Shown in pieces: positions 7,505 to 57,859 of a stretch of DNA of 64,000 bases. Positions within the stretch are counted from its first letter, which is position 1, and each line of letters begins with the position of its first letter. Under the pieces are notes generated by a model. It did not search any database. It saw only the letters and a program-made list of their open reading frames with translations, and was not told where the DNA came from. A program made the position numbers and the translations under genes. This DNA is from Sipunculus nudus. Taxonomy: Eukaryota > Annelida > Sipuncula > Golfingiida > Sipunculidae. The stretch spans positions 84,162,142-84,226,141 of the forward strand of contig CM049306.1 of the NCBI GenBank assembly GCA_026874595.1, read 5' to 3'.

Positions 7505-7688
7505 ACAAGTGACCCATAGGTCATGACCCTCAGCTGACTGGGAAGAGATTTGCCAAAGGAAATTTTATCATCTGAATGGTAGTATATACCCATTCAACTG
7601 AAGCATCAAACAGATTAACCAACAGGCCAAGATTGTGACTGTATTTATATAACTCAAAAATAGAGAAAAAATGCATAAACTTTAAAAA

Positions 7689-10434: not shown

Positions 10435-10438
10435 TACA

Positions 10439-12480: not shown

Positions 12481-12499
12481 AGCTGAGCTAAAAACCATT

Positions 12500-12612
12500 A
12501 ATTTGGATGGGCAACCACCACCCACTCTCACAGCCATGCCAGGAATCGAACTTGGGTCACCAGCGGAGAGAGCCAAGCATGTTACCCCTTGACTGTCAAA
12601 TCCCTATTAGCA
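12500..12612 (-). repeat. tRNA-like SINE head
   Basis: On the minus strand the B-box-like GTTCGATTCC (12551-12542) lies about 35-40 bases downstream of an A-box-like stretch near 12600 (TGACAGTCAAGGGGTAACATG). This is the spacing of a tRNA-type pol III promoter. The cloverleaf is not intact enough to call a tRNA gene. It lies immediately beyond the B1 tail. Confidence 0.5.
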
Positions 12613-13172
12613 TCCATAAGTGTGGATTCCAATGTTGAATCATTATCTGCTGTTACATTTCTTGTTTAGAATTCCTGTCAACTGAATGGATTACTGGGTG
12701 GCCTATTAAGACTTAGGATCTGAGTTACACTTTAATAGCACCAAAACATTAGAAGGGAAACACAGCTGGGTCTAGACTTTTGTTTTACATAAAGAGAAAA
12801 TGAAACACTACTTATACAGATATCATAACCACACAAGTAAACAGGATTAAAGGAAAAAAAAGTTTAATTCTAAATAAAGTATGCCAAGAGAAAAGAAGTG
12901 GCATGGATTTTGCTCCCTTCCTTTAACAAACAATAAGAAATTAACAATGTAAAGGAAATTCACAATACTGAAATGCAATCAAATCTGGTTAACAAGTAGC
13001 TTGTGCTTCACAATCTTTTACCTCATTCAAATAAATTCACAACCTCTCTAAATATATTGTAAATAGGTTAACATGTTTAGTATAAATATATTAATAGTAC
13101 AATCATAACAAGAAAAGGTCATCATTCATACACATACAGTAAAGCCCTGACATACAGCAAGGCACTGGAATG
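12613..13172 (-). other. Probable 3' UTR of the IL-17-receptor-like gene
   Basis: AT-rich sequence downstream of the minus-strand stop codon (13173-13175). Minus-strand ATTAAA signals are present at 12868-12863 and 12736-12731. I see no minus-strand AATAAA close by. The transcript end is uncertain. Confidence 0.35.
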
Positions 13173-14533
13173 CTAGCACCGTATGGGCAGACAAACATCC
13201 TCTAACAAACTTGACTTGTGTTCTGTACCATGTGCAGGTCCCCTCTCAAATGGCGTCAGACTCGGACAACTTCGAGTCATATCATCTTCACCCTGGTTCA
13301 TAATTAACAAACACTTGTCACAGCTCTCCTCTATGCAGTCATCAGTTGGAGTGTGGAATGTCAGGCGTGGCCACATATTTGGGGTATAATTACGTATGAA
13401 CTCTATATCCTTTAACATTTGTGTCATATCCTCCTCCACCACACTTTCCTCCTCATCAGAGTCCTCGTATGAGTTTTTCTGACCTTGTGTTTCAGGACTT
13501 TTTAAAAGGGGATCACTGCTCTGTGGAGTGTATGTTCTACTAAGTGGAGGCAATGATGAACTCTTCATAACAACAGGCATGAACTCTGGTTCTGAGCTAA
13601 TATTGTCAGATTCGTGTTCAATATTTCGAAGAAGTGGGGAGCCACTAGATGCACTGCTGTGGTTTGACGGAATGTGATTACTGGACATTTTAATATAACT
13701 GCCTGAACGAGGGTTGGTCCCGTTTTCTAAATATCTCATTCTGAGTTTCCTCCTTAGTGTGTCTTCCTCATCCTCCACGTGGACTTCTACAGGTAAGGTT
13801 TGCGATGAGGACTGAACGCTTTGTTTGTTAATGGGAGGTAAGGGTCTTCCTTTGTTACTTTTAAGCCCAGGAGAGCCACTGCTTGAGGACACATCCAAGT
13901 GGTCTAATCGACTATGTAACCACTGAGGATTATCTTTATAATAATCCTTGCAGTCATTAATTGCTTTCTGCAGTTCACGACCAGCTTCTGTGTTTGCATA
14001 GTATTCAGCCATCACCCCGTGAAATAAACTTCCACTTTTACCCACATCTACCTTGAGACCATGTATGTGCTTGTACATATCAAATATATCTTTCATCAAA
14101 AAGAATTTGTAAGTTCGATCCAATTTGGGAGGAATATCACTGTCAACTGAATATTCAAAATGCACTGAGATAAATTTTGTCACTGCTTCACCGTTATTTT
14201 TCATGACTCTCATTTTCTCGGAGATATAGTCAACTGCTTGAACAAACATATCTGGTATTGCCTGATTCTGAGTGGCTTTAAGTTTTCTCCCTTTTGTACA
14301 CTGAAAACGAGCTCCAGTTGAGCAGACCAGTATAACGAACGAGACTGTGTCTATCTGGTCCAACAACCAATTGACTGGTCCTCTGTCTTGTATGAAGTTA
14401 TACTGCCATTGGTCAAACTGGACATCACAGCTGCACACCTCTCTCAAATAATTAGCAAATTCAGTAATCACCTTGTCATGCATGTCACAGTCCGAGGAGT
14501 AAACCAAAAGAACCAATGGCTGTAACTTTCCAC
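13173..14533 (-). CDS. IL-17R-like exon 12: SEFIR domain, cytoplasmic tail and stop
   Basis: Acceptor AACTACAG at 14539-14534. The exon runs 1,361 bp to TAG 13175-13173. Residues ~450-600 form the SEFIR domain: first strand PLVLLVYSSDCDMHDKV, acidic/aromatic box CDVQFDQWQ, the helix GPVNWLLDQIDTVSFVILVC followed by STG, and the C-terminal part with the aromatic run YKFFLMKDIFDMYKH. This is the TIR-related fold used for homotypic contacts with SEFIR adaptors. The remaining ~300 residues are low-complexity Ser/Pro-rich with acidic patches (EDEED, YEDSDEEESVVEED) and no second domain I recognise. The open frame appears to start at 14516, but that codon is TTG inside the domain, not a start. Confidence 0.96.
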
Positions 14534-17500
14534 CTGTAGTTAATCAAAATAATAATATAAGCAAAATACCCAAGGACTCAAGCAGAAGAATATAAGAAAT
14601 TTATTATTATGGATCTGTTAAATGAAGAAAAATAAAAACATAATATTGAATGAGCATCAATAACACCTGATTTTCTTCATATATTACAAAAGTAATTCAA
14701 ATTAGTACCATATATAACTTTAAGGAAATAAACACAAATATCAATAATATTTCTAATTTTTGTTCAAACTTTTGATCCCATGAGAGATGATAGTTTTCTG
14801 CCAGGAGGCAAAAGTGTGTCTGTTTTGTAGGGGCTAAATGTTGGGATTTCTACATTAATATACATTTCATGAGGTTTCTTATTTTGACAATTTTCATGGG
14901 AAGAAAAATCCCTAGGTAAAGAAAGATGTTACACATATAACATTGAGAAAAAACACAAGAGTCTGGGGAGCTGAGGGATAGCTGCATACCACTGTTCTTG
15001 GCTGGCCTGATATAAAAAATACTTGACATGGTGCTTGAAAACTTGAATAAAATCTACAATTTTTGATCAACTGGTTTTGATTTCACATTTTAACAGATGA
15101 AATGCTTATATCTGCATGCTGTGAAAATCAACTCCACAGCATTTACAGGGAAAAAACTTGCCATGGTCAAATTTGGACGAAATTTAAGGTACTGATTTTA
15201 TATTTATGCTAATAACTTAAAACATTGGCAAAATTCAAAGTATACAAATGTCTCTAGCTTCAACAATTCTCATGTTAAGTGAGTAAATATATTTCCTGAT
15301 TTTTTTCTGAGTGCATTATGTTTGGACCCAAAACTTAAGAAATTACACAATACTGACCTTATTTCTAGCACGTACATAGGAATTATATAGAGGAATATAC
15401 ATATTTAATATGATCAAATTCAGATCAGTGGTTCTGATATTAGGTCTTGAAGCACATTAATGCGTCTTTAATGGAAAATTGAGGTTTTTCTTTAATATCT
15501 TGAAGGAAAGAAGTCCTAGTTAACCAATTTTTGGCATGGTAGATTTTTTTCGGAACATATAACTGTGTGCAAAATTTTGGATTTGTAGGTCCAACAGTTT
15601 CAAAATGTGGCTGGACAAAGGACCATGATTATAGCTCAGATGACTTATAGTCAGCTGATCTAAAAAACTGAGAAGCTTCAGTGTGGCAAGATGCTGCTGT
15701 TTGTGTGTGTATCTTTCTGTATGTATGTATGTGTGTATGTGTGTATGTGTGTATGTATGTATGTAACTTTTAGCCATATCATTAAGTTTCTGCCATAACC
15801 ACTCCAGAATCACTACCAACCACTATAGGTCATTCCATTAAAAGCTGTAGAGTGGGGATCAACTTCAGTACAAACTATTCAGATTGTATGCATTGTTTCA
15901 TTTACAAGCATTTTATATACATACAGGTTATCACTTACCAAAACTTATTTCATCACTGTTCCGTGCGTGAAGTCTATGCATAGGAATGTTACCTGAAGTA
16001 ATAAACAAGCAGGTATGATCAACCGTTGTAGACATACAAAAAGAGACTGTACAGACCATACCCTTTTTTTATTACCATTAGTCAGCATATTGTAGGTAAT
16101 ATGTCAGTATTTGTAAAAGAAACATGTCACCATGTTATTAAGTGATCTGTGATGAATAATTTGAATTCCTCTTTTGTCTCTAAGAGCAGAACCGAATAAT
16201 TAGCACTACTCTTTTTGTTTCAATACATGCAAGATCAGTTCCTTGGGTTTTGATCATGTTAACAAAATTCCATAATTCCTCCCCCCCCCCCCCCCTGAGT
16301 TTTCCCTGACGAATCTTCAAGATTCTAGAATATATTTGCAACTTATTTCTAGTGTGACAAATTTTTATGTTAGTGTTGTGAAAAGATATTATTGCAGTTA
16401 ACATAATGAAACTTAGAATCTAGTTTGTGTTGTATGTACAAAAATTGTAGCTACAGTATGTGTTACACAGAGTTGAAGAGAGATTTCTGCACTAATAAGC
16501 AGCCTGAGCAAGTACAAGTATTCATATAACAAGGCCTACAAGGCTAATGCGAACCTGTGCATTGGGAAATACACCAGGTATAATGCTTCAATGCTGGACC
16601 ATTACTTCTCATGTATATGAACAATGAAAGTACTAACATTTTGAATAAGAAACAATTACATAAACATCACTGCTAAAATTCTGGCATAGGGGCACACATC
16701 ACAAAAATGATTGTAGCTGGCACCACCAGTCTTGTATACAACGAAGCTATCAGATATATATACATATGCCTAATTTCAGACTGATATATCAAACCCCTCC
16801 TAAGAAATAAGCAGGGACACACTGTGCAAAAACTATTTTAGGTGGCACCTCCAGTCTTGTATATGACTAAGCTATTCAATATGTATAAATATGCCCAATT
16901 TCAGGCTGATATATCAAATTAATCTATAGAAATAAGCACACACATATGCTGTGCAAAAGTCATTGTAGGTGGCGACACCTGTCTTGTGAACGAGAAAGCC
17001 ATCAAAGACACATAGACAGGTCAAAATATCAGGCAAATACATCAAACTTACCTTGAGTCTGATGCATGGGGCTGACCAGGCTTAGGTGAGAAAGCCAGTT
17101 GCCCCAAGTGAACTGTGACAAATTTGCTGGCTCAGGCTACAGCACTGAGTGAACTCCTGACCTGCATCTGGCTAGACTGTGCGAACATTTGACCTGTACC
17201 TGGCTGCACTGAGTGAAATCTTGACCTGTTGCATAATCTGACACAGTTGGCAGTCTGCCAAATCCATAAATAGATCCAGGCTGAACTTTGGTGCCAAAAC
17301 TGATGCAGTGGGCAGTCTGCCAATGCTATAAATAGGATGCTGCTACTGCACTGAGTGAACTCCTGACCTTTACCTGGCTGCACCGAGTGAACTCTTGACC
17401 TGCTGCCTAATCTGATACAGTTGGCAGTCTGCCAAAGCTATAAATAGATCCAGACTGACCTTTGGCCTGTTGCCAAATCTGAAATAGTAGCCACACCATT

Positions 17501-26500: not shown

Positions 26501-29500
26501 GTTCACATGTGACCTGATGATAAACCCGATTTGCTTAAAATGCAACCCAAGTTTTTTCAAACAGTTGAAAGATATAGTTCCAATAATCTGGGAATTCTGC
26601 ATCTAAACATTGTATCCAGACGTCTAGACGCTGTGTCTAGACGTCTAGACACATTGTCTAGACACCCCCCCAGAGCCAGGTCAGTTGCCATGGTGATGTC
26701 TGGACCCCACCTGTTTGTACTGAGTGACCTCTTGACTTGGCTGCATGAAGTCAAATCTGTTTTCAAATACAGAAAGCCTTTTTCAATTGGCTACAATGCT
26801 TTTTTAAAACTGTATTTACCCAATATATTCTTATAAAACTGGCAGAACCCTACCATAGAATAATTCTTGTAAAGTTTAAACCAATCAGCTGAACAGTTTC
26901 ATCATAAATCAGTGTATAAGCTAGAAGAGTTTAAAATTACATTTTCGCTTGTAAAAAACACATCAATGTAGCTGGCGCCACCAATACCTCAAAATAAGAT
27001 ATGACATATGTGACAAACATTAGTAAAAAATTTGGTCATTATAGCTCTAGCTGTTTCTGAGATTTTAATTTTAGTGTGCTTTTTTTGACAGATGACTTAG
27101 TTCAACCTCCTGTAACTCGGCCAAAAATCTCCGAACTGGAACCATTCGAACAAACTTGAGAGAGATTGTTCCAGAGATCATTTCTGTGAAATATTGGACA
27201 ATTTGGCTGGACAGTTTCAGAGAAGAAGATTTTTAAAGGTTTTTAAGCTTTTTCTCTATAAAATCTAAATTAATGCAGATACCCAAAAATAAGCTCTAGG
27301 CCACCAAGTTTCACATGTGACAAATTCTTACATGTAATTTGGAGCTGCTAGCTCCAACAGTTTCTGACTTACAGCCATGGACGGCGGAAAGCCAGCCCTG
27401 GACGGTGGACGGCGGACGGACGACGCTGCGCCATCGCATAAGCTCACAGGTTCGCTAAAAAAAGTGCCCGAGAACCATACCTTTTTTTTATTTTGGCCTT
27501 AATATTAAATTTTGATGTCAAATATAATGGTACATGCAAAATTCTCACTTGATGATCGCCTTCTGCGTTGCTTTACAATACAGCAGACCACCATGATGAT
27601 GATGACGAGGCCGATGAAGCTGAAGACAGTGGCCAGGATGATGGTGATGGACTGAGCATATTCATCATCCTCTTTAGGCTTAACTATGACACCATTATCT
27701 ACAAACAGTCAAAAAACACAGCTCCAGGCACACACTCAGTTAGTGCAAGCAGGCCAAATATACAGCATCAGACAGAAATCAAGCTATAGTGTCAGCAGAT
27801 CCAGCTACACAGGCAAATATGGCAGGGCATAGCAACAGTACTGATCAGCAGTCGTAAAGAACTGACCTTAAAGACCAAGCAGCCAATCAGAATGCTAGCT
27901 GCAGTTCAGCAGCCAATCCAGTTTCAGCAAACGATCAGAGAGCACAATACTTCTTTATTTGGATACAGGCTTTACATATGTGCTGCCATTATCTTAAGAC
28001 TTAAATCTGAATATTAATTATATCATTCATCAAAATTATTTTCACATTCATATTTCATGTACACTGATGACACCCAAGTGTCACTACAAATGATTGAAAG
28101 GCAGTGAAGTGTGTACACTTCAGAAAGGTCAGTTTCAATCAAATTTTCATTCAGTATAAGCTTTTGTCTAGTAAGAATCAAAAATAAAATTCATTTGTGA
28201 TTCCTACTGTGACATCATATCAGAAAATCCATCAATAACCATCAGTAAAAACTCAGTTTAAAGATAACCAATAAAAGGTGATTAAAAGAATAAAAAGACT
28301 TAAAGACATACAAACCATGAAGGGGATGGATAGAAGAGATACCATCTAATGCACAATTACAATTTATTAGTCATTTTTATTCATGCATGAAACTAAGAGA
28401 ACACTGGGTTTTGATGCTGAGCCAATTAAACATCTACGAATGCAAGTATCAGAAACAGTGAAATATAGAGCACACTAGGCCAGACTCCTAGCATGATTCC
28501 TGATACAGGTCATGCTTGAAAAAGCGTTTTCTTTTGTATATTGAGTACCTCATTCCTACTATACATAAACATGATTTGCAGGAGTGAGATATTCAAATGA
28601 ATAATGTATATAATCATATATACTCTATATTATACATACTTTTGCAGGAATCATAAATTAATGGTGCAAACAAAACATACCTTAAACCTACATTGTATAT
28701 CAGTCATAAGGTTAATCAGAACTTCAGTTTGTACCTAAAATTATCACACCTGAAAATGTGGACAAAGTTTGTCATAATTTGTCAATGATGATCAAATTTC
28801 TACTTAAGACATCTTAAGTTCATCAGTTACAAAGAGCACCACAAGATAATAAGCCCATCTGAGGTCTTATGACCTTTGACCAGATTAAAATGCAAGCATT
28901 TACCGAGAATTAAACACAGGTGTGAATCCTTAAGTAAATATTTAAAATGAGTCTGATGGAAATCAAGAAGATTTTTAGTCTTCACAGAGCTACCACAATT
29001 TCATGACCTCATTAATTGGCATAGATTTTGCCAGGATTCACACTAAGGTGATATATTAATATTTTTTGTTAATTTTTTTTCAAGTTTCATCAATATCCAT
29101 CATATTCCTGGTTAGTTATAGTGGCAATAACACAGAAGCCTGGTGATCCTGACCTCACTGAATTATAGTGGATTTTGCCTAGAGTAGCAGTTGGGTGAGA
29201 AAATCTATTGGTAAATAGTTATGGCAAGTTTGTAAAACATCCATCAAAGCCTTGTATGTTATCACAGTGACACTAAAAGTTAAAGGACAGATGGACATAT
29301 GGACAGACAGATGAAGGGTACATGTATACCATAATATGTCCCATCAATACATTATATAAACAAGGGACCCATGGGTCACATCACTCAGCTGAATTTTGGA
29401 AAATTTTAGTAACTGCAAAATATTTTTATTTCTTTTGGTTTTTCATGTATATTATCATTAGAAAAGCTGTGAGAAAATGGCCCTGCTAAAATGAAACTCT

Positions 29501-41500: not shown

Positions 41501-44500
41501 TTTCTTTATTAAATGAATATGTTTTAGAATGGTGTGTCAATATCAGACTATAAACCAAAAGATGATAAAGTAATTAAATATAGTCTTGCTGTTATCCATT
41601 AACTCAACATTTCTGTGGTAAATTTAACTTAACATCTACATATGTGACTTTATCATGGATGTTTATTTTCATAGAGGTCATGTGTCATATATAAAGCCAG
41701 TCAAAAAGAACATATAAGAAACATATATGCATTTTGATTACATTGGTACATACCTGGAAGGTAGATCACAGTCAATTCAAAATCTGGCATAAGATATCTC
41801 ATTTGATATCAGGCATGGCACTGTGCAGGATATGCACATAAACCTCTGTGCTTATAGACCCCTTCCCTGATTTATTCTGCATTAATCACGCAAAGAACGA
41901 TAATGATACTAAATTCGACAGAAACTATTTAAAGGATTGATACAAATCTGATTATTCCATGTAGCAGTAGTTCCTAATTATCTGGATAACCACAATAAGG
42001 GACAGATATACTGGTAAGCAAAACTAATAATACTCAGAGTTATTATCATTTTGCTTCATTGGTGGTGGTCTGGCTACAGCAATCATTGATATTTAATGGG
42101 TATCTTGGATCATGTAAGAGTACAACCATATAGTTAACCAAACAGTGGAAGAATATATATATATATGAAAGTATACCATAGTTTCACAACCATGGGAGAT
42201 CAATGTTGAATTATATCAAAATTGTGAAGGTCTTTTGTCTATCTGTGAAATGAAATACAATAATGATTGGGATATGAACCACAAGCTTTGAAGAAAAACA
42301 GACTGGCATATAGAGCTCCACTGTTAATGTGTTACAATGTGAAATGTCTTTATCAATATAATCAGATGCCCCTATACTGATGAAATCACAATATATGATC
42401 ATCTCATGGAAAACAACACCCAACATTTAATACTTGTCTCTTAGCATCATATAAGAAATGTAACATAAAACATTACTGGTTAGAATTCAGCTGAACATCA
42501 CCTGACAGGCTGACTGCCACACTTTTGACCAACCAAAATGGCTGTTTCAGATGTATAAATGACCGATTATCATAGGGGCAACAGCTTGACTAATACTCAA
42601 TTTTATTTATGGCTCAAGAATAAATGTTATGGGAGGAAGTTTGGTTATTATTAGATGAACCAGGAAGGAAGAAAATTGCCTTAGAATCTAAACTATTTAT
42701 ATCTCTCAAGTATCATATTGTGAATTGTACTGAGAACTAGAATACAGGCATTCGACAAGTGACTACGTGTGTCCACCAAATCACATTGGCATGGGTAAAG
42801 TAAGGCACTGAATGTTCCTGACATGACATGACTCCAAATTTGTGGCATCAGTGATGCCAATTAAACTTCTCATATATGTGCAATTTTCACCAAAAACAGA
42901 TCTACAGATGGATACACCACGAAAAATTTCAGGCCTAGCCTCACCTAGACACAAATCCACTACTGAGAAAAAGTGCATTAATGTATTCAACAAAAACAGA
43001 ACAGCAGGTGGCACCACCTGTCCGGCCAACAACAAAACTATCCAAGATGGTTAAACATGCAAAATTTGAGACTGATACATCCATCCACTCCTGAGATATA
43101 AGTGATTTTTACCAAAAGCAAACAGACAGATGGACAACATGTGAAAACAATTGCAGATGGCGTTACCAGTCTTGAATATCCAAGAACTATGGACATGCAC
43201 AATTTCAGGCCAATATGTCAAATCACTCCTGAGGAAAGGGCAACAATGTATTCTACTAAAATAAAACAGGAAAGAAAGGGCAACAATGTATTCTACTAAA
43301 AAAAAACAGGAAGATAGAAGTTGCCACCTGTAGAAAATCATTATAAGTGGTGCCATCAGTCTTGAGTAGAAGATGGAGAGATCAAAGATCTATGGACATG
43401 CAAAATTTAGCTCAATACATTGAATCACTCCTGAGATAATGGCTTTAATCAAGAAGACACCCAGATTCATACTTCAGAAAAAGGATTGCAGGTGGTGGTG
43501 CCACTACTCTTTGTTATATAAAACCCCATAGGGGAGCAAATAAGTTTGTCAGGTTTCAGAAAGATCCGTCCAAGGGTCTCAGAGGAGTTCTCAAGAAATT
43601 AACGCGGTGGCGGAACCTGCGTGAAAACATAGTATCCGCACAAATATGTTTTGGCAGATACAGTGAATTATCAGAATGTTTCATATAATCAAATAATGTC
43701 ATGTTACAGACTGTGTAGAATCATTACTGAAACTTAGGAAAGCTGGATATACATGTGATTGTTTTAAGATAAAAGAAAATGAAATTTTACTTATTTTTCT
43801 CTCCAAACAAGCAATTTACACATATAATCACACATTCAGATTCCCATGTTTTATATTTAATGTTGTTCAGCCCAGGGAACTGGCTGGGCCTTTGACTAGG
43901 AGCTTATATTTCTTAACATATAATGACTTACTGACAACACTCCATGTTAACGTGCCCCACAGCTCTAGAGTCTGCTCCCCAGTACTGTTCCTGGTCACTG
44001 GAGTGTATTTTAATGAAGTAATTTTAAGTCTCTGCTGTCCATTACTCCCTGTGGATACACCGCTACTGATAAGTGACTCATTAGCATCCTGAGGTATATT
44101 GCTACCTGTATATCCCCCCACAGGTATGGTGGGCAACACACATTCTGAAATGATAATAAGGTACCTAGTGATTTCATTTTCGCAAAATTGGCACATAATG
44201 TAAGGCTTGAACAGGAAAAAATGAAGGGTCAGTCTTACACAATATAAGGTGTCTAAAACATTATTACACTTGTTTATTTGCTGAAACTATGGAAGAACTT
44301 GAGCCTTAAAATTTAGAATAGGTGTCCAATAAATGACAGGGAAAAAGGGGGAAACCCTGTTGATATTTCATGCTGGGTAGTGGATAACCAACTAGCTTTG
44401 TCTGTCTCTCCTCAGATGACAGAATGATATAACAAGTGACCCATGGGTCACGGCGCTCAGCTGATCGTGATTGGACTATTAAAGTTTCTCCACTGTGATA

Positions 44501-50500: not shown

Positions 50501-53500
50501 AATTATAAAAAAAAAAACACCAGGAAGTTAACCATTTCACATTTTCTGTACAAATGTGGAAAGCCTTACCTTTGTCATGATAGAGATGACATACTTCTTC
50601 TGTCTTGTTATCACAGCACGTCTACAGATATAACAAATAGAACAAAGGCTAAACTAGATACTGGACATCAAACACTTCCAGTTACATTAATCTGCAGGGA
50701 TCTCATCCTTCTTTTCCACAAGATGTAGAACTGTTTTGTAAATAAGCCATATAATTCACTGAGCTACAGATACCTGTCCATGACATATAAGAACGTGTCC
50801 TGACCCCCCCCCCCCCCACAACAGGTACTAAAATCATTTAGAAGCCTGGGCTGTGACAAAGTATTCACAGGGCAGCTTGCTGATTGACTAGTTAATAAGG
50901 AGGCCTGAACTTGTGAATGTGAAATTACTTCTTTAACAGTTAAATTTTATACATATTCACTAAATTCTAAGTAATCTGCAGTAGCTACACAATGAATAGA
51001 TAAATGTAAACAAAAATGTATTAATCCATTAAAATGATGAGCACTTCCTATGCAAAAATGCTCTCCTAGTTGTTAGGAAGCTGTTAGTTTACTGCTAGTG
51101 CATGGCTAGTTACCCGTGAGCTAGCCATTAGGTAACTGTTAATATTTCACTTGAGAACTTCAGTTGGCAGCCTAAAGCTCAAGTTAGCATTGCTTAGCAG
51201 TTACTTAGCAAATGAAGTGGAACTCTAAGTAACTGGTTAGCAGCTTAAATGAGATCTAGCCACTACCTGAGACTTAGGAATGGTTCCCAGCCTTACTTGG
51301 TTGATAGCAGTTACTTCACACTGTCTTAGTGACTGGTTTACACTTACAGCTATACGAGGTTGCTTGCTTCTACTTGAGATTCAGTAAGCAAATTTTTTAA
51401 AGCCTTACTGGGAGGTTAGCAACTACCTGAATCCTAGGAGATAGTTATTTCCGGTCTTGCATATTCGATTACTACGGCAAATACAAGTTGCAGCATTCAA
51501 GATTTTGGCCAGAAACAGGCTGCGTATTATACACAGGGTTATGTGTTTTTCCTCAGAAATTGTTGCTCTAAATAGGGGTGTGGATTATCAATGGTAGCGG
51601 ATTATCCACGGGGGAAAACGGTACATATAGGTACCCCGAAGGGGTGTCGCAGCAAATTAACAAAGCTGAATGACTTTGGTACCTCCGTCATTCAGCCTCA
51701 ACTTCCCTGTTTATGTAGCTCCATAGGGTGGCTGACATGGTGTCAGTGGGCTGGCTGGCATCAGTGGACATGTCAGTTTGACCCTGTGATTTTAAGCAGC
51801 TACTACAGGTGGCAATAGTGCATGTGTTATACAAAATGGTCATTTACCTGTGCGCAATGACAGCTCTGTTGTTGATAAAATCCATTTATTAATAGTCCAG
51901 TATGTGGCGCAATATGGCTCAGACTGGTTACATTAGAGGTTAAGAGTGTAATATAGTGAAGCTTAATAAACCTCTAATTTAATTGGAGTATGCTGCAGCA
52001 AGCGTGGACAAATGCCGAGACACTGATACAGGTGATATTTCATCAAGTGATTTTATAAACAGAAAGAGTAGTATTAAATTTAATTATATGTTATTTTAAA
52101 CAAAAACAAAGTCTTTACCATAACATATAATCCATGTTTTATTTGAATAACTGATATATATCAATTTAATAGCAAAAAAAAAAAAAAACAGGCTTGGTAT
52201 CTATGGCCAGTTACTAGTCATTAATAAGTAACAACTGCCATATTTTTAATTTAAATTTGTTATCTTGTCAAATTTGGTTGTGCAAAAGGTGACATATTGT
52301 ATTAGTATATTAAGCTTTATTGTGTTAATATCACTGCATTATTATACACATGATGCAATGTATACAAATTCAAGTTTTATTGCTAAATCAATTTTGTTTT
52401 GATTGTTGGTTTCTTTAGAGTTCATTATTTTATTAATTAGTTGAACTAAATATATAAAGAAAAAAAAAGTTCTTTGAATTTTGACTTGTTTAAAAGGTCT
52501 TGTTTTAGGGATTCATCACGGTCAGTCAAAAGGAATGATAATTATGCAGTAAGAAGGAGGTCAGACTTGAACATAAACTGTAACATGATAAATATTAGCG
52601 ACAATAAGATCAATAATTTTGAGATCAGCTTTGTTAATGATGATTAATATTGTATTAAGAACTGTAACATCATAATATTATCTACCTCAAATAAATAAAT
52701 CTTTATTACAAATTTCATCATTTTAATTTATTCAAATGTTAATACAGCAAAATGATAATAATCATTTTAGTATTATAGTCGACTGCCTACAATACAGCCT
52801 ATTGGTATACAAGTTTGCCCAAAGCCCATTTATGAGTCATCCTATTATTTATTTGTTCATTATAGAGAGAAATTAAATCTCTTTCTGCAAATATTTTCTG
52901 GTTAACAATAATAGAATGTACTTAATGAACCTAAGTTATAAAGTAGCTGCTAAGTTGCAGTCAAGCTTTGCAGCAGCTTTTCAACTTTGCAATAACTTAG
53001 CAACTTGGCAATAACTTCACAACCTAGAAATTACTTCACAAGTTTATTCTCCTTTATATCCTCATTATACGATGTACCTCAAGTTGTTCAAGGAGATTCA
53101 TGAATATTCATTACTTAGTAGTTTTGGATTTGCATGTGAAAATCTCAACCAGTTGCTAGCTAGCTGTTAACTAACCACCCCTTACACTGATTGATGCTGG
53201 GGGCAAATACGTCAACATCACAAGTATATGATGATTTTCAGGATAATTAACCCTAGTCACTGTTAATGATGAGTAGCAATTCTGAAGAGTGATTATTAAA
53301 CCTGAGTTGATTTTAATACAACTGCTTTATAATATTCAATTATCTATAGAAAAAGGTTATATTTTTATTTGTCTTTTGAAATCTTGTTTCAAATATGAGT
53401 GTTATTTAATTGCCAAGTGTTGCTCTGGCAAATATTGTTTTAAACTTTTTTTCAACTAGAATACAGGTAGTCGACAAGCGACTACGTATATCCGCTGAAA

Positions 53501-56500: not shown

Positions 56501-57859
56501 TTTGTTGATTGACAGTGGGTTTAATTTCTTTATATCATATGAAGCTGGGTACATTTGGCTTGACAGGAGACACTGTTTGGGGTCTTCTTGTAACTGTTTT
56601 TGTATTGGATGCAGTGTGGACTATATGTTTAGGTGTGTGCTCCCTGGTCTGGTCCTGTGGATTACTAAATCTACAAGTACTGGGGGTTCCCCTAAACACC
56701 TGCGACACAACACCATGAAACACTCTTTTAAACTCAAATTTAAAGCATTAAACTGGTATCAGTTGATAAATTATCATCTGCTGAATATGTCGATGAAGTT
56801 TTGTGCCAATTTTTTACAGAATAAAAGAAAACAAGAGTGTATTGTACACCTGACAAGTGCTCAGCTTGATTGAGACTTCTACCACTAGGGGGCAGCATCA
56901 TAGTCTACATAAATGGCTGCCGTGTCGGTCGTTGAACCGACTGCAACACAAAACACTGTCATTTACCTTTATGTCATAAATTTATAATATAATATTTCAA
57001 AGATAAATTTATCTGCTCAATATTATGCACAGATGTTACTTTTTTTGCTCAAAATTTGAAGTAAAGTGGATGTTTTGTGGTGTTTTGTCACTGATACCCA
57101 AAACACTGGTGCTTTGGCTGTTTACAGGTACTGAGTACTCAGGTATGAGCAGAAATAAAAATAAAGTATAATGAACCTTGTTTTGCTGAATAAAATAAAA
57201 AAATAATAAAATGTGGAGCACCTGTAAGGTGTTTACAATTAAAATCCTTTCTATCCTGTTATATAACTTTTTTTTCAAGTTTTAAAATAATTGCACTGGA
57301 ACTATCTCTCTACTGAGTAAGTTTGAAATTTATTCCCCCCCCCCCCCCCCCATATTTCAAAGGGTGCAATTAATGTCTTTTACTGGGATCAATATGTGCA
57401 CAATTGAAATTTAACATATGAACTAAATGCACTTAACTTGACATATAATATTATTTATAAGCCACATCCAATAGCAGCTACACCCAATATTATTATCAAA
57501 TTATAATATAAACAAACAATTTTTCACGAGCATACCTACAGAAAAACTACAAAACATGATCCCATATCAACCCCAGATAAGTTAAAATATGATATGATGA
57601 CTCAGTTTCAACAATAACACTGAAGTTTTGGTGTGCTCTTTCACTTCCCTCTATGGCTCTATGCTCTGATGACTGGCATGTTGTTCAGTGTTTACATTGT
57701 GTGTGTTGTTCGTATATCATTTCAGCCCGGTCTTACCTTGGTAGGGTAAGTCCTTTGAAAACATGTCAACTGGCTGGAAGCGTCAAGAATACTATACAGA
57801 CATGACTGCGATGACATGAACAAAACTAGGCTCAGTGGTGCCAGTTGCAACCGAGCCAT
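13173..57859 (-). CDS. IL-17 receptor-like transmembrane protein, 12 coding exons, 896 aa (full model)
   Basis: Reading the minus strand, the coding exons are 57859-57737, 50621-50570, 44144-43932, 40840-40740, 39179-39056, 34906-34761, 33566-33513, 33149-32981, 32369-32226, 27698-27549, 15992-15939 and 14533-13173. Every junction is GT-AG and phases match throughout. The sum is 2,691 nt, 896 codons plus stop. Domain order: signal peptide 1 to ~19; ectodomain to ~290 with eleven N-x-S/T sequons and scattered Cys; Ser/Thr-rich stalk ~290-375; transmembrane helix ~393-417 followed by QRRRR; SEFIR domain ~450-600; acidic, Ser-rich tail to 896. SEFIR receptors bind IL-17-type cytokines outside the cell and recruit SEFIR adaptors of the Act1/CIKS type inside. 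Orthology to a particular vertebrate IL17R cannot be decided here. The acceptor of exon 8 is the least certain junction. Confidence 0.93.
14534..15017 (-). other. Intron 11, proximal part
   Basis: AT-rich intron sequence. No repeat with recognisable ends. Confidence 0.5.
15018..15666 (+). mobile_element. Family B element, 3' portion only
   Basis: Homologous over its length to 30880-31550 and 48380-49079 (shared 'ACTTGACATGGTG', 'TGCTGTGAAAAT', 'AAATTTAAGGTA(C/T)TGATTTT', 'GGTTTTGATATTAGG'). It ends with the family B hairpin arms AGCTCAGATGACT and AGTCAGCTGATCT followed by A's. No matching head is visible, so it is 5'-truncated. It lies in intron 11. Confidence 0.7.
15701..15764. repeat. (GTAT/GTGT)n microsatellite
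   Basis: Alternating TGTG and TGTA tetranucleotides. The open frame that crosses it (rich in Thr and His) is a by-product. Confidence 0.9.
15939..15992 (-). CDS. IL-17R-like exon 11: short cytoplasmic linker
   Basis: Acceptor ATTACTTCAG, donor TTTTG|GTAAGT. Phase 1 on both sides, 54 bp. It encodes SNIPMHRLHARNSDEISF, a basic-then-acidic linker between the membrane and the SEFIR domain. It sits between introns of 11.6 kb and 1.4 kb and is symmetrical, so skipping would shorten the linker without changing frame. Confidence 0.88.
17130..17720 (+). repeat. Short degenerate tandem repeat, 'CTGGCTGCACTGAGTGAACTC'
   Basis: Units of about 45-60 bp built on 'CCTGGCTGCACTGAGTGAAC' then 'TCTTGACCTGTTGCC'. 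The module recurs at about 19795-20130 and 20850-21110 at the same place after each family A head. A side cluster 'CCCATGAGGTG(A/T)TCACATG' is repeated three to four times. Confidence 0.85.
18543..19337 (+). mobile_element. Family B element nested inside a family A copy
   Basis: Head AACTAGGGAGCCCATGGGTC then ACGCTCAGTTGAATTTG; tail CCTCAGTTGACTTACAGTCA then GCTGAGCTAAG. The interrupted sequence reads CACAACAC | AATGATTGTAGCTGG, which aligns with uninterrupted copies at about 16690 and 20555. This copy therefore inserted after the surrounding A unit. A short GACAGACAGACA tract (about 18888-18930) lies within. Confidence 0.75.
21760..22430 (+). repeat. Tandem array of ~177-bp units in family A 3' half
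   Basis: 'AGCTTCCCATAACTCAGCC' recurs at about 21769, 21948, 22123 and 22300, with the full units between ('CTAAGGATAATTAATGTGTG', 'TTTGGCCCAGTGGTTTTTGA'). The three central units are nearly identical, which indicates recent homogenisation. Older single units lie at 18100-18370. Confidence 0.9.
22971..23590 (-). other. Intron 10, no feature recognised
   Basis: AT-rich intron sequence between the family A composite and the split MITE. No repeat ends or splice-bounded frames seen. Confidence 0.45.
23898..27463 (+). mobile_element. Helentron-like element, family A (copy A4, most complete)
   Basis: Head ACAAGGCCTACAGGCCTAAT then GCGAACCTGTGC; tail CGCATAAGCTCACAGG then TTCGCTAAAAAA. The 11-bp inverse match GCGAACCTGTG/CACAGGTTCGC is intact. 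Order inside: head, C-like hairpin region (from about 24071), dimeric array 24190-26340, a segment with a 22-bp perfect palindrome (26632-26653), a unique region shared with A1, a GGACGGACGACG block, then the tail. No coding capacity. Confidence 0.8.
24190..26340 (+). repeat. Tandem array, ~278-bp dimeric units (A4 core)
   Basis: Palindrome cores at about 24224, 24369, 24498, 24647, 24776, 24924, 25053, 25202, 25331, 25481, 25608, 25765, 25891, 26040, 26168 and 26318. Spacing alternates near 149 and 129 bp, making about 7.5 dimers. It is the same unit as 7980-9300. The GGTGGCGCCACC core is exact at 24498, 24924, 25053, 26168 and 26318, among others. Confidence 0.93.
27549..27698 (-). CDS. IL-17R-like exon 10: transmembrane segment
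   Basis: Acceptor TTTGTAG, donor TCATCAA|GTGAGA. Phase 1 on both sides, 150 bp. After an acidic juxtamembrane stretch (KPKEDDEY) comes a 25-residue hydrophobic helix (SITIILATVFSFIGLVIIIM and onward to CCIV) and the stop-transfer cluster KQRRRR. This fixes a type I topology with the signal peptide. The right-hand TIR of a MITE lies only about 50 bp past its donor. Confidence 0.93.
27699..29359 (-). other. Intron 9, proximal part
   Basis: AT-rich intron sequence. Nothing beyond a short GGACAGATGGACA patch near 29285-29315, which resembles a decayed Helentron tail without the hairpin. Confidence 0.4.
29360..31550 (+). mobile_element. Family B element(s), copy B4
   Basis: Two heads (ACAAGGGACCCATGGGTCAC at about 29360 and ACAAGGGACCTATGGGTCAC at 29666), each followed by CTCAGCTGA, precede a single tail at 31515-31550 (AGCTCAGATGACT, TAC, AGTTAGCTGAGCT, A's). 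The 3' part 30880-31550 matches 15018-15666 and 48380-49079. A GACAGACAGACGGACAGACA block precedes the hairpin. The first head may be a separate truncated copy. It lies in intron 9. Confidence 0.7.
31551..32160 (-). other. Intron 9, distal part
   Basis: No mobile element or additional exon recognised. Open frames at 31863-32093 (+) and 31924-32106 (-) have no recognisable content. Confidence 0.4.
32226..32369 (-). CDS. IL-17R-like exon 9: Ser/Thr-rich stalk, possible cassette exon
   Basis: Acceptor TATTTGCAG, donor ACACAGG|GTATGG. Phase 1 on both sides, 144 bp. It encodes 47-48 residues dominated by Ser and Thr (TQTESTTSSILPTTASKV and onward), a mucin-like O-glycosylated stalk by composition. 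Because the flanking exons join in the same phase, it can be included or skipped without a frameshift. Reading through the donor gives a 22-codon extension and a stop at 32163-32161. Confidence 0.82.
32981..33149 (-). CDS. IL-17R-like exon 8: end of ectodomain and start of stalk
   Basis: The chosen acceptor is TGTCACAG|GTAGTG at 33149, donor GATACAG|GTACTG. Phase 0 in, phase 1 out. The product opens VVPLQSECSSC, so YTVS-VVPLQSECSSC matches the 'Y-x-V-x-V-x-P-(x)-C-x-x-C' end of IL-17R ectodomains. It then becomes Thr/Ser-rich (TASTVMETTSLESS). Three other in-frame CAG acceptors lie up to 39 bases upstream and would add up to 13 residues. None has a good polypyrimidine tract, so the 5' edge is uncertain. 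Confidence 0.78.
33513..33566 (-). CDS. IL-17R-like exon 7: ectodomain, 18 codons
   Basis: Acceptor TTTTACAG, donor GTGTCA|GTAAGT. Phase 0 on both sides, exactly 54 bp. It encodes SQEAVIFSNVSQGNYTVS, the F-strand/turn/G-strand pattern 'V-x-F-x-N-V-x-x-G-x-Y-x-V' common at the end of the second receptor module. Two sequons (NVS, NYT). The symmetrical phase means skipping would keep frame but delete a strand. Confidence 0.9.
33567..34760 (-). other. Intron 6
   Basis: Intron sequence with a short (AT)n run near 33619-33632 and otherwise nothing recognised. The 34268-34459 (-) and 34388-34576 (+) frames are not supported. Confidence 0.45.
34761..34906 (-). CDS. IL-17R-like exon 6: ectodomain
   Basis: Acceptor TGTTGCAG, donor AATTCT|GTGAGT. 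Phase 1 in, phase 0 out. It encodes residues 205-253 with alternating hydrophobic strands (IREIRVLVLLQLPPV, FNFTLLEVTLEGPGG). The pattern P-P-x-x-F-x-F-T-x-x-x-V-x-L-x-G resembles the membrane-proximal fibronectin-III-like module of IL-17 receptors. It contains one Cys and one sequon (NFT). Confidence 0.9.
35142..36304 (+). mobile_element. Family C repeat unit (copy C1)
   Basis: Starts AACTAGAATACGGGTAACCG, ends ACATAGTATCCGC then AAAACTTCGTTTTGGC. The core holds palindrome-bearing monomers (35281, 35706, 35837, 35986). Other copies start the same way at 42735 and 53455 and end the same way at 43658 and 55735. In the best copy (53468-53486) the start forms a 7-bp hairpin GTAGTCG/CGACTAC. The end forms a 6-bp hairpin CAAAAC/GTTTTG. 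Confidence 0.65.
36316..38340 (+). repeat. Tandem array of ~340-bp units (B3 core)
   Basis: Units begin at palindrome cores 36316, 36656, 37002, 37344, 37680 and 38017 (spacing 336-346 bp). The last three have the exact GGTGGCGCCACC. It is homologous unit for unit with the B1 array. Confidence 0.93.
39056..39179 (-). CDS. IL-17R-like exon 5: ectodomain
   Basis: Acceptor GATTTTCAG, donor CAGAAG|GTAACC. Phase 0 in, phase 1 out. It encodes residues 164-204. It opens NFSYGCIPGP and contains YQLNVTSLPEGATETCAVYV, a strand-turn-strand with two Cys, typical of cytokine-receptor beta-sandwich modules. It holds three sequons (NFS, NGS, NVT). The neighbouring intron 5 is occupied by element B3. Confidence 0.9.
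40187..40384. mobile_element. Small MITE with GGATC-containing TIRs
   Basis: The left end CAGAAGTGGATCCAGG and the inverse of the right end, CAGGGGTGGATCGAG, face each other about 200 bp apart. Both have C/G-rich followed by T-rich interiors and a 16-C tract. No clear target duplication. Its right edge abuts the second copy of the 1340-1515 repeat. Confidence 0.5.
40384..40530. repeat. Dispersed repeat, copy 2 (first copy at 1340-1515)
   Basis: Shares ordered blocks with 1340-1515 (CACTAAGGAACCCC, TGTGAGTGATAC, CTTCCCATTAAG, GAGTGCTC). It lies in intron 4. Confidence 0.6.
40740..40840 (-). CDS. IL-17R-like exon 4: ectodomain
   Basis: Acceptor TTTCAG then ACACAGG, donor CACAG|GTAAGC. Phase 1 in, phase 0 out. 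It encodes residues 130-163: NTGSIEAFRIEHLSIQGELL, then a hydrophobic strand GCLVLEVFNIS with one Cys and one sequon (NIS). The continuity WSV-V-N-TGS across the junction with exon 3 supports the model. Confidence 0.88.
40841..42734 (-). other. Intron 3, proximal part
   Basis: AT-rich intron sequence. A weak 'CTATTTCTGTGGTA'-type unique region and a short (AT)n at about 42154-42166. No element ends recognised. Confidence 0.4.
42735..43658 (+). mobile_element. Family C repeat unit (copy C2)
   Basis: Starts AACTAGAATACAGGCATTCG and ends ACATAGTATCCGC then a decayed hairpin (CAAATATGTTTTGGCAG). It contains four to five diverged monomers and, at 43233-43309, a local duplication of about 40 bp ('GGGCAACAATGTATTCTACT' twice). 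It lies in intron 3. Confidence 0.65.
43932..44144 (-). CDS. IL-17R-like exon 3: ectodomain
   Basis: Acceptor CATTTCAG at 44147-44145, donor GTAAGT at 43931-43926. It enters with two bases that complete a Glu codon and leaves in phase 1. It encodes residues 59-129, starting CVLPTIPVGG, with sequons NES and NST and a strand-like end (LELWGTLTWSV) of the type seen in fibronectin-III-like receptor modules. Intron 2 (44145-50569) carries a family B element with a hAT-like insertion. Confidence 0.88.
44518..46627. mobile_element. hAT-like DNA element with 8-bp target duplication
   Basis: The ends CAGACATGGGGT and ACCCCATGTCTG are perfect 12-bp inverted repeats. The flanking 8-bp direct repeats GTCGATAA (44510-44517 and 46628-46635) are perfect, the duplication length of the hAT superfamily. 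Just inside each end is a long TATTAC-type hexamer array (44533-44682 and 46500-46616). No transposase is recognisable in the 1.8-kb interior, so it is non-autonomous. Superfamily is inferred from TSD length and CAG ends. Confidence 0.85.
44533..44682. repeat. (TATTAC)n hexamer arrays, left subterminal
   Basis: Three blocks of TATTAC/ACTATT hexamers separated by short unique spacers. The leucine-rich 60-codon open frame here is a translation of the simple repeat. The counterpart is at 46500-46616 on the other end of the element. Confidence 0.93.
47536..47672. repeat. 70-bp tandem duplication
   Basis: 'ACTGAAAATATAAGTT' through 'GCAATCATTATATAT' occurs twice, 70 bp apart, with a few mismatches. 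It lies within B5. Confidence 0.85.
49080..50569 (-). other. Intron 2, distal part
   Basis: AT-rich sequence between the B5 tail and exon 2. No element ends or additional exons recognised. Confidence 0.4.
50570..50621 (-). CDS. IL-17R-like exon 2: 52-bp micro-exon
   Basis: Minus-strand CTGTAG|ACGTGC to GACAAAG|GTAAGG. It is the only small exon I found in the 13.6 kb between exons 1 and 3 that accepts phase 0 and leaves phase 1, exactly as its neighbours need. It encodes residues 42-58, beginning TCCDNKTEEVCH: three Cys and an N-K-T glycosylation site. This fits the Cys-rich N-terminal edge of an extracellular domain. It is too short to appear as an open reading frame of notable length. Confidence rests on phase, splice sites and cysteine content. 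Confidence 0.75.
51060..53180. repeat. Candidate ~2.1-kb element with degenerate 'GCTAGTTAC/TTAGCAA' ends
   Basis: 51060-51440 is filled with loosely repeated TTAGCAGTTACTTAGCA, CTAGTTAC and GTTAGCAACTAC motifs. 52930-53170 has the inverse style (AACTTAGCAACTTGGCAATA, CTAGCTAGCTGTTAACTAAC). Between, at 51515-51605, are TGCGTATTATACACAGGG and GCGGATTATCCACGGGG, like the ends of Tigger/pogo-type relics. No exact termini or duplication were found. It lies in intron 1. Confidence 0.35.
53455..55737 (+). mobile_element. Family C repeat unit (copy C3), split by a TIR element
   Basis: Starts AACTAGAATACAGGTAGTCG then ACAAGCGACTAC (7-bp hairpin 53468-53486). It contains monomers with palindrome cores near 53696, 53842, 53971, 54118, 54249 and 54401, and ends TATCAGCAAAACTTAGTTTT then GGCGG. 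The end is interrupted at ACATAGTA/TATCAGC by the element at 54607-55707. It lies in intron 1. Confidence 0.7.
54607..55707. mobile_element. 1.1-kb TA-flanked TIR element (pogo/Tigger- or mariner-like)
   Basis: The left end CAGTGAAGCCCGCTTATTGT and the inverse of the right end, CAGTCAAGCCCACTTTGTGT, match at 15 of 20 positions and continue (CATAT(T/C)GGT). TA flanks both sides (54605-54606, 55708-55709). The uninterrupted site exists at 36267-36300 (ACATAGTATCCGCAAAAC), which proves insertion. The interior is less AT-rich than its surroundings. I could not read an intact transposase. Confidence 0.88.
55738..57736 (-). other. Intron 1, distal part
   Basis: Contains an unassigned stretch at 56500-56870 with overlapping open frames on both strands (see findings), a 17-C tract at 57335, and otherwise AT-rich intron sequence. 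None of these frames is required by the receptor model. Confidence 0.4.
57737..57859 (-). CDS. IL-17R-like exon 1: start codon and signal peptide
   Basis: The ATG at 57859-57857 opens 41 codons ending at a strong donor, CCAAG|GTAAGA, in phase 0. The product begins MARLQLAPLSLVLFMSSQSC, a typical signal peptide: a basic residue, an uninterrupted hydrophobic stretch (APLSLVLFM) and small residues (SSQS) before a likely cleavage near residue 18-20. It continues with Cys at 33 (LTCFQ). The downstream phase match to exon 2 supports the frame. Two upstream ATGs at 57875 and 57872 open a short overlapping frame and are not the receptor start. Intron 1 is about 7.1 kb. Confidence 0.85.

What the first reader, a model, noticed from the sequence alone, without database searches (positions are those of the whole stretch)
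13173..57859. A complete 12-exon IL-17-receptor-like gene recoverable by phase-consistent splicing
Only the last exon is obvious as an open frame. The other eleven are 52-213 bp and lie among 43 kb of mobile DNA. All eleven introns are GT-AG, all phases agree, and the sum is exactly 897 codons. The order signal peptide, Cys-containing beta-sandwich ectodomain, stalk, transmembrane helix, SEFIR is that of IL-17 receptors (established knowledge). IL-17 signalling is a mucosal defence system in molluscs, so a lineage-specific receptor with an unusual mucin-like stalk and a 300-residue acidic tail is of immune interest.
Basis: partly seen in the sequence, partly recalled or inferred. Interest (0 to 1): 0.85.

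Follow-up and report, generated by a model that had tools for sequence, protein, structure and literature searches.

The report
Invertebrate Sef-type IL-17 receptor gene
This stretch of an animal genome holds a real, apparently intact interleukin-17 receptor gene whose signalling part most resembles the vertebrate receptor IL17RD (Sef); it is a sound find but an expected kind of gene, not a new kind of receptor.

Summary
Reading the minus strand, I recovered 12 exons with the finding's numbers: 52-213 bp for the first eleven, all introns GT-AG, 2,691 nt, 896 residues. In-phase GT-AG chains are easy to find in this DNA, so that alone proves little. Stronger evidence: the last exon scores 104 bits against Pfam SEFIR (cut-off 23); no exon touches a within-window repeat; and two other SEFIR loci of the same genome between them carry exons like model exons 4-7, 10 and 12 in matching phases. 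Exons 6+7 outscore 5,000 decoys against a profile of those relatives.

It is an IL-17 receptor, best matched to human IL17RD/Sef (31% over 205 residues; human letters recalled). It is not lineage-specific: it lies closer to human IL17RD than to its own genome's other receptors. A Ser/Thr-rich stalk is not unusual, since both relatives have one. The genome also holds 18 IL-17 ligand loci and an Act1-like exon. Exons 1-3, 8 and 9 rest on splicing and composition. RNA evidence, species and fold were not available.

The parts
57737..57859 (-). Exon 1 (123 bp): start codon, hydrophobic signal-peptide-like leader; ends phase 0
   Evidence: in-frame TGA five codons upstream of the ATG (upstream letters). 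Signal peptide by eye, no predictor available.
50570..50621 (-). Exon 2 (52 bp), phase 0 in, phase 1 out; Cys-rich
   Evidence: supported by splice sites and phase only (acceptor weak, top 18%).
43932..44144 (-). Exon 3 (213 bp), phase 1 in, phase 1 out; start of ectodomain unit D1 (...LWGTLTWSV)
   Evidence: best coding score of the small exons, 0 of 2000 random open frames reach it. No paralogue counterpart found.
40740..40840 (-). Exon 4 (101 bp), phase 1 in, phase 0 out; D1
   Evidence: exon of same phases and 110 bp at the same place in locus A; by sequence that exon does not pick out exon 4 (not in the six best), and D1 as a whole is weak (20 of 1000 shuffles reach it).
39056..39179 (-). 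Exon 5 (124 bp), phase 0 in, phase 1 out; D1, FSYGC...YQLNVTSLP
   Evidence: locus A exon of 121 bp, same phases, YNYSC...YNISVHSLP; its ORF ranks 2nd of 2952 with that exon as query, E 2.8.
34761..34906 (-). Exon 6 (146 bp), phase 1 in, phase 0 out; ectodomain unit D2 (fibronectin-III-like), first part
   Evidence: two copies in locus B with the same phases, one exon in locus A that joins 6 and 7; ranks 1st of 2952 window ORFs with the paralogue profile, E 0.079.
33513..33566 (-). Exon 7 (54 bp), phase 0 in and out; D2 last strand (IFSNVSQGNYTVS)
   Evidence: two 48-bp exons of the same phases in locus B; 6th of 2952, E 1.3; exons 6+7 beat 5000 decoys.
32981..33149 (-). Exon 8 (169 bp), phase 0 in, phase 1 out; last Cys pair and start of Ser/Thr-rich stalk
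   Evidence: an exon candidate of the same phases stands at the same place in locus A, sequence likeness not tested.
32226..32369 (-). Exon 9 (144 bp), phase 1 in, phase 1 out; Ser/Thr-rich stalk (44% S+T over residues 286-380)
   Evidence: splice sites, phase and composition only.
27549..27698 (-). Exon 10 (150 bp), phase 1 in, phase 1 out; transmembrane helix (window 27583-27651, residues 392-414, bounds by eye) and KQRRRR stop-transfer
   Evidence: highest 19-residue hydropathy (3.09, next 2.55) of the ORFs printed for 16.0-32.1 kb; transmembrane exons of the same phases in loci A and B.
15939..15992 (-). Exon 11 (54 bp), phase 1 in, phase 1 out; juxtamembrane
   Evidence: 72-bp exon candidate of the same phases at that place in locus B, none recognised in A.
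13173..14533 (-). Exon 12 (1361 bp), phase 1 in: SEFIR domain (window 14067-14513), C-extension, 297 residues after the SEFIR match, stop codon TAG
   Evidence: Pfam SEFIR 104.3 bits; PDB IL-17RA SEFIR (4nux) aligned from residue 11 to 210 of the frame; acceptors read for the SEFIR exons of A and B are also phase 1.

Best explanation
The window holds one intact, single-pass IL-17 receptor gene of the IL17RD/Sef type. Exons 2-8 make an N-glycosylated ectodomain of two fibronectin-III-like units (D1, exons 3-5; D2, exons 6-7), held off the membrane by a Ser/Thr-rich, probably O-glycosylated stalk (exons 8-9). One helix (exon 10) crosses the membrane, and a basic juxtamembrane segment leads to a SEFIR domain with the C-extension seen in IL-17RA. 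Most likely mechanism: a secreted IL-17 dimer, from the 18 or more ligand loci of this genome, binds D1-D2. The receptor pairs with itself or with one of the genome's other two SEFIR receptors, and the SEFIR domains recruit the Act1-like SEFIR adaptor, leading to NF-kB/MAPK output. The proline motif after the SEFIR (KGRPLPP, residue 671) may add an SH3 contact, as proposed for Sef. Shown: exon structure by sequence, SEFIR membership, one hydrophobic transmembrane segment, paralogous exons with matching phases, ligand and adaptor-like genes in the same genome. Inferred: glycosylation, fold, ligand binding, pairing, adaptor recruitment, output.
For: SEFIR 104.3 bits, cut-off 23. PDB chains of IL-17RA/RB SEFIR, best 5e-21. 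Model of 12 exons, 896 aa. SEFIR against human receptors: RD score 262 (z 43, 31% over 205), RA 168, RB 120, RC 69, Act1 46 (RD, RC, Act1 letters recalled). Two further SEFIR loci over the cut-off in the genome, which between them have like exons in matching phases for exons 4-7, 10 and 12, and one candidate for exon 11. The paralogue D2 profile gives the isolated exons 6+7 17.8 bits against at most 11.8 for 5,000 decoys; inside the whole protein the same region gets 10.2 bits. Four-member D2 profile against the recalled human IL17RD ectodomain: Prob 81, E 1.2e-5. 18 IL-17 ligand loci over cut-off. Act1-like exon. Repeat-free exons, sequons.
Against: No Pfam or PDB sequence match for the ectodomain on its own. 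Single-sequence alignments with human ectodomains were negative or marginal: RA 40, RB 49 and RC 8 of 500 shuffles reach the score; RD 8 of 1,000 shuffles and 2 of 400 decoys; hhalign negative. The four-member D2 profile hardly matches PDB-confirmed RA/RB (Prob 8.9) or RC (Prob 0.4). D1 gave no clear match. Locus A's D2 alone does not match the model's D2 (152 of 1,000 shuffles reach it). The three Act1-contact positions of IL-17RA helix alphaC (T480, N484, M485) are V, D and Y here, read by hand. No TRAF6-type motif in the cytoplasmic part by the pattern used. Exons 1-3, 8 and 9 have no paralogue sequence support. The first-pass coding and splice chain was a different one.
Confidence: 0.87

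Rival explanations
1. The gene is real, but one or two of the small exons are wrong or alternative (most likely 2, 8 or 9), so the true protein differs locally from the 896-residue model.
For: In-phase GT-AG chains are abundant in this DNA. Exon 2 has a weak acceptor and exons 2, 8 and 9 have only phase and composition behind them. Locus A joins exons 6 and 7 and locus B seems to hold two D2 units, so exon layout varies between relatives.
Against: The chosen exons keep one open frame with leader, sequons and transmembrane helix in order, and all lie outside within-window repeats.
Confidence: 0.3
2. Only the last exon is real: it belongs to a soluble SEFIR adaptor (Act1/CIKS type) or an intracellular SEFIR protein, and the upstream chain is a chance assembly.
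For: Only the last exon is an obvious frame. The ectodomain has no Pfam or PDB match by itself.
Against: The SEFIR scores 46 with recalled human Act1 but 262 with recalled IL17RD. A separate Act1-like exon exists in this genome at C14. Transmembrane and D2 exons with matching phases precede the SEFIR exon at two other loci. Exons 6+7 beat 5,000 decoys.
Confidence: 0.03
3. The protein works mainly as a Sef-like brake on growth-factor (FGF/ERK) signalling rather than as a cytokine receptor.
For: Best SEFIR and D2 match is IL17RD/Sef (recalled letters). An SH3-type proline motif lies after the SEFIR, as described for Sef (PMC7805053, passages). An Aplysia gene annotated IL17RD is discussed as an immune regulator (PMC8195618, passages).
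Against: IL17RD-like SEFIR may simply be the ancestral state. The genome has 18 IL-17 ligand loci and few receptors, which argues for cytokine binding. No binding or pathway test was possible.
Confidence: 0.25
4. It is an inactivated copy (pseudogene) that still looks intact.
For: No expression evidence is available. Introns rich in repeats.
Against: No stop or frameshift in 2,691 nt. SEFIR exon open over 456 codons with the highest SEFIR score found in the genome.
Confidence: 0.03

Closest known systems
Vertebrate IL17RD (Sef)
   Same: Single-pass receptor with SEFIR; highest SEFIR score of the five human proteins compared and best D2 alignment; the SEFIR alignment runs on into the C-extension; proline-rich SH3-type motif after the SEFIR; 13 exons and 739 residues in human (PMC7805053, passages) against 12 exons and 896 here.
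   Different: Longer ectodomain (about 370 residues against 272 in human, same passages) and longer tail; no counterpart recognised by eye of the juxtamembrane Tyr330 or of the TRAF6 subdomain. The human IL17RD letters used were recalled and not confirmed by any search.
Human IL-17RA
   Same: SEFIR plus the helical C-extension align over 200 residues (4nux); Trp428 and Ile420 of the SEFIR-specific helix contact are kept, by hand on that alignment (residues from PMC4014126, passages).
   Different: 25% identity against 31% for IL17RD; Glu416 is Gln and the Act1-contact residues of helix alphaC differ; the long IL-17RA tail domains were not compared.
Mussel (Mytilus galloprovincialis) IL-17 receptor isoforms, above all IL17R-C and IL17R-F
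   Same: IL17R-C: SEFIR E 9.9e-30, TM end at 35 and SEFIR start at 71 (36 apart), against 5.6e-29 and 37 apart here (TM bounds here by eye); IL17R-F: 874 residues, TM 386-409, SEFIR 467-602 (PMC8353272, section 12 read). Receptors there have up to 11 exons (passages).
   Different: The published IL17R-C model is 566 residues with TM at 13-35, so it has no ectodomain; no mussel sequence was available to test orthology.
Sea urchin SpIL17R1 and SpIL17R2
   Same: Signal sequence, long ectodomain, TM, SEFIR; many exons (17 and 16), and the last exon of SpIL17R2 encodes the SEFIR; few receptors for many ligands, 2 for 35 (PMC5457136, passages).
   Different: Ectodomains of 535 and 662 residues against about 370 here; those authors found no Act1 in echinoderms, whereas an Act1-like exon is present here.

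Membership tests
IL-17 receptor family | Cytoplasmic SEFIR domain | tested here: met
   104.3 bits, cut-off 23; 101.8 bits in the whole protein; PDB IL-17RA/RB
IL-17 receptor family | Single transmembrane helix between ectodomain and SEFIR | tested here: met
   Residues 392-414, hydropathy 3.09, followed by KQRRRR; hydropathy only, no trained predictor
IL-17 receptor family | N-terminal signal peptide | tested here: inconclusive
   Hydrophobic leader in exon 1 and in-frame stop upstream of the ATG; judged by eye, no predictor run
IL-17 receptor family | Ectodomain of fibronectin-III-like units D1 and D2 | tested here: inconclusive
   D2 supported by paralogues and by alignment with recalled human IL17RD; D1 weak; no Pfam or PDB match for the ectodomain alone; no fold predicted
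IL-17 receptor family | Binds IL-17 cytokines | not testable with these tools
   Ligand genes exist in the genome (18 loci over cut-off); binding needs experiment
IL-17 receptor family | Recruits Act1 or another SEFIR adaptor | not testable with these tools
   Act1-like exon in the genome; the helix alphaC region aligns but its three contact residues differ (by hand)
IL17RD/Sef subtype | SEFIR nearer to IL17RD than to IL17RA, RB, RC | tested here: met
   262 against 168, 120, 69; RD and RC letters recalled, IL17RE not compared, no tree built
IL17RD/Sef subtype | Proline-rich SH3-type motif just after the SEFIR | tested here: met
   KGRPLPP at residue 671; common motif, weak evidence
IL17RD/Sef subtype | Conserved juxtamembrane Tyr330 and TRAF6 subdomain | tested here: inconclusive
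   No counterpart seen by eye in exons 10-11; the TRAF6-type pattern hits only residue 383, outside the membrane
Act1/CIKS adaptor | SEFIR of the Act1 kind without a transmembrane segment | tested here: not met
   Score 46, z 3.3 with recalled human Act1; transmembrane exon present

The most novel reading that the evidence does not exclude
This gene is the invertebrate counterpart of IL17RD, older than the protostome-deuterostome split, and serves as the shared subunit that pairs with the two faster-evolving receptors of the same genome to read 18 or more IL-17 ligands. Its scattered exons supply the ectodomain that is missing from the published mussel IL17R-C model, and its SEFIR carries the C-extension described as specific to IL-17RA.
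Probability: 0.25. Interest if true: 0.5.

Novelty: new member of a known kind. Interest (0 to 1): 0.28.

Why it matters
It gives a full exon map for a receptor whose exons are tiny and kilobases apart, which makes it easy to truncate in automatic annotation. It shows that in one genome the receptor most like vertebrate IL17RD is set apart from two more divergent receptors, while ligand loci number at least 18. That few-receptors-many-ligands layout is known from sea urchin and mussel; here it can be tested receptor by receptor. The gene itself is of an expected kind.

Tried and rejected
1. Chain search by splice and codon score alone: it returned in-phase chains of 27-41 exons that are not this gene, so phase agreement was dropped as proof.

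2. A further exon-like piece at 34513-34564 (52 bp) was left out because it breaks the frame between exons 6 and 7; the acceptor at 34838 for exon 6 was dropped for the one at 34906 because only that fits the phase.

3. First assembly had two boundaries one base short; corrected.

4. Ectodomain against Pfam and PDB: no signal. Single-sequence hhalign and local alignment with human RA, RB and RC: none or marginal (RC 8 of 500 shuffles reach it), and hhalign with an RD/RA/RB profile none (18 of 60 shuffles reach it). Human RA and RC do not match each other by that local alignment either, so this was not taken as refutation.

5. Viral contigs for the SEFIR exon: nothing. tRNA and Rfam (gathering threshold) scans of the window: nothing. 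PDB search with the recalled human IL17RD ectodomain: nothing, so its letters stay unconfirmed.

6. Host identity through the bacterial contigs' COX1: in the 80 loci kept of 582 relatives (capped list) the best are 58% identical and of mixed phyla, so the host was not identified. Contig C123 is 112 kb and was not followed further.

7. Structure of the SEFIR exon: five requests, machine busy each time.

8. Circularity to note: the locus-B D2 exons were first seen by tblastn with the model's own D2. Locus A's D2 was found by splice and coding score alone (top of its list). In that list the second B copy ranks first and third; the first B copy ranks lower. The ranking is therefore not wholly independent for B. 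Paralogue exons were picked from the printed lists by eye.

Full report
Observation. The finding names a 12-exon gene on the minus strand between 57859 and 13173 but gives no exon list. I rebuilt it from raw sequence. The last exon is the open frame 14543..13173 (456 codons). It matches Pfam SEFIR (PF08357) with 104.3 bits against a cut-off of 23, and solved IL-17RA/RB chains at best 5e-21. Starting from the ATG at 57859, candidate exons were chosen by splice sites, phase and protein sense. The result is twelve exons, all introns GT-AG, 2,691 nt, 896 residues, no internal stop (one search had two boundaries one base off).

Is it more than chance? Splicing in phase is not enough. With the same sites a simple chain search finds in-phase chains of 27 to 41 exons in this strand; they are not this gene, though each shares four or five of its ten middle exons. 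The chosen sites are better than typical (donors all in the top 7%, nine of eleven acceptors in the top 9%, two in the top 18-20%), but they were selected, so this is biased. Codon composition is weakly coding: two of eleven small exons stand out singly. Better signs are these. Exons 2-8 carry 12 N-glycosylation sequons, where 400 decoys built from random open frames of the same introns average 1.5 and reach 7 at most. None of the 12 exons touches any of the 15,859 bases of the gene span that blastn finds repeated within the window. The transmembrane exon has the highest hydropathy of the frames printed between 16.0 and 32.1 kb.

Paralogues carry the case. The genome in which the window lies is held (1.43 Gb, 153 contigs; the window is C1:84162142-84226141). 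A SEFIR search gives this gene (1.6e-27) and two more loci over the cut-off on the same contig: A at 47.54 Mb and B at 56.89 Mb; two weaker matches lie below it. I fetched 30 kb for each, from the SEFIR exon upstream. By splice and coding score locus A shows, in order, an exon of 110 bp with the phases of model exon 4; one of 121 bp with the phases and the pattern (YNYSC...YNISVHSLP) of exon 5; one exon that joins 6 and 7; one with the phases of exon 8; and a transmembrane exon with the phases of exon 10. Locus B shows exons 6 and 7 twice, as separate exons with the same phases (146 bp in the model, 170 and 182 bp in B; 54 against 48 bp twice), a transmembrane exon and a candidate juxtamembrane exon with the phases of exons 10 and 11. 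I picked these from longer printed lists. The SEFIR exons of A and B also begin after a phase-1 intron. A profile made only from the D2 exons of A and B ranks the model's exon 6 first and exon 7 sixth among 2,952 six-frame ORFs of the window (E 0.079 and 1.3, not significant singly). It gives the isolated exons 6+7 17.8 bits, where the best of 5,000 decoys gets 11.8; in the whole protein the region gets 10.2 bits, running across the exon 6/7 junction.

Against this: A's D2 alone does not match the model's D2 (152 of 1,000 shuffles reach it), although the two B copies do (0 of 1,000 each); the D1 match to A is weak (20 of 1,000); exon 4 is matched by phase and place rather than letters; and the B exons were first noticed by similarity to the model.

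What it is. SEFIR plus one transmembrane helix makes it an IL-17 receptor rather than an Act1-type adaptor. The SEFIR region scores 262 with human IL17RD (31% over 205 residues), 168 with IL-17RA, 120 with IL-17RB, 69 with IL-17RC and 46 with Act1 (RD, RC and Act1 letters are recalled, and no IL17RE was compared). Against the receptors of its own genome it scores only 85 and 82, while A and B score 158 with each other. So the gene is not a lineage-specific receptor; it is the conserved, IL17RD-like one, and A and B are the divergent pair. The ectodomain points the same way, less firmly. By itself it matches nothing in Pfam or PDB. Single-sequence comparisons with human ectodomains are negative or marginal (IL17RD 8 of 1,000 shuffles and 2 of 400 decoys); human RA against RC also fails by that method. 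With the paralogues added, the D2 profile aligns with the recalled human IL17RD ectodomain at Prob 81, E 1.2e-5, faintly with PDB-confirmed RA/RB (Prob 8.9) and not with RC (Prob 0.4).

SEFIR details. The alignment with IL-17RA chain 4nux runs through the helical C-extension. The authors of that structure call this extension specific to IL-17RA (PMC4014126, passages). By hand on that alignment, Trp428 and Ile420 are kept, Glu416 is Gln, and the helix alphaC positions T480/N484/M485, whose mutation in IL-17RA impairs Act1 binding, are V/D/Y. A proline motif KGRPLPP follows at residue 671; Sef has an SH3-type segment after its SEFIR (PMC7805053, passages). The tail after the SEFIR match is 297 residues with 46 acidic and 31 basic, so only mildly acidic. 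The stalk (residues 286-380) is 44% Ser+Thr; hand-chosen stalk pieces of 30 and 24 residues in A and B are 40% and 50%, so a Ser/Thr-rich stalk is a shared trait.

Partners in the same genome. Pfam IL17 (PF06083) gives 18 loci over the cut-off, 5 on C4, 5 on C5, 4 on C11 and 4 on C14, most of them in clusters. A weak SEFIR match on C14 (20.9 bits, below cut-off) is an Act1-like exon (z 17 with recalled human Act1). Ligand, receptor and adaptor-like genes are thus all present, which supports the ordinary IL-17 signalling reading. Binding, pairing and output are inferred.

Compared with what is known. Mussels have six IL-17R isoforms of 566-874 residues (PMC8353272, section 12 read) with up to 11 exons (passages). 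Aplysia has three putative IL-17 receptors (PMC9334734, passages) and one gene annotated IL17RD (PMC8195618, passages). Sea urchin has two receptors of 17 and 16 exons for 35 ligand genes (PMC5457136, passages). Mussel IL17R-C has a similar SEFIR E-value and nearly the same spacing from membrane to SEFIR, but its model lacks an ectodomain; the present gene may show what that ectodomain looks like. That orthology is inference, as no mussel sequence could be compared. A search for papers with IL17RD, invertebrate and SEFIR listed three. I therefore file it as a new member of a known kind.

Limits. No RNA evidence, no eukaryote protein database beyond PDB, and no structure prediction were available. 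The genome search for ectodomain relatives by protein did not complete.

Noticed in passing
window 7503-12501, 23897-27462, 34959-38371, 53448-54606: Long tandem arrays (units near 278 and 336-338 bp; the 278-bp consensus holds GGTGGCGCCACC) recur as related blocks in the same orientation; 7978-10434 and 25020-27461 are 92% identical. They look like a dispersed element carrying internal tandem arrays, or segmental duplications; not identified.
   Followed up: partly
L007-L009 (G000:C1:56886000-56915999, minus strand): Locus B holds two copies of the D2 exon pair (6435-6616 + 9227-9274 and 12929-13098 + 14051-14098 in reverse-complement coordinates) before one SEFIR exon: either a tandem receptor pair or one receptor with a doubled ectodomain, as IL-17RC has four such units (recalled).
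   Followed up: partly
G000 C4, C5, C11, C14 (L010-L021 and others): Eighteen IL-17 ligand loci over the Pfam cut-off, most of them in clusters, against three SEFIR loci over the cut-off; counts are lower bounds.
   Followed up: partly
L022 (G000:C14:3768198-3768407, minus strand): An Act1/CIKS-like SEFIR exon (RFIPVLFEGATEKDIPEWL), below the Pfam cut-off but z 17 against recalled human Act1.
   Followed up: partly
G000 contigs C60, C61, C62, C66, C72, C74, C75, C89: Bacterial-looking contigs (four lengths seen, 57 kb to 3.3 Mb; GC 37-38% around COX1 in the four stretches seen) with nearly equal COX1 scores sit in the host assembly, as if several strains of one associated bacterium; the best COX1 relatives in a capped list from 84,980 species are 58% identical.
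   Followed up: partly
window 34513-34564 (minus strand): A 52-bp exon-like piece (GNNFSVEVRIAEPNFQQ) between exons 6 and 7 that would break the frame if spliced in; alternative exon or chance.
   Followed up: no
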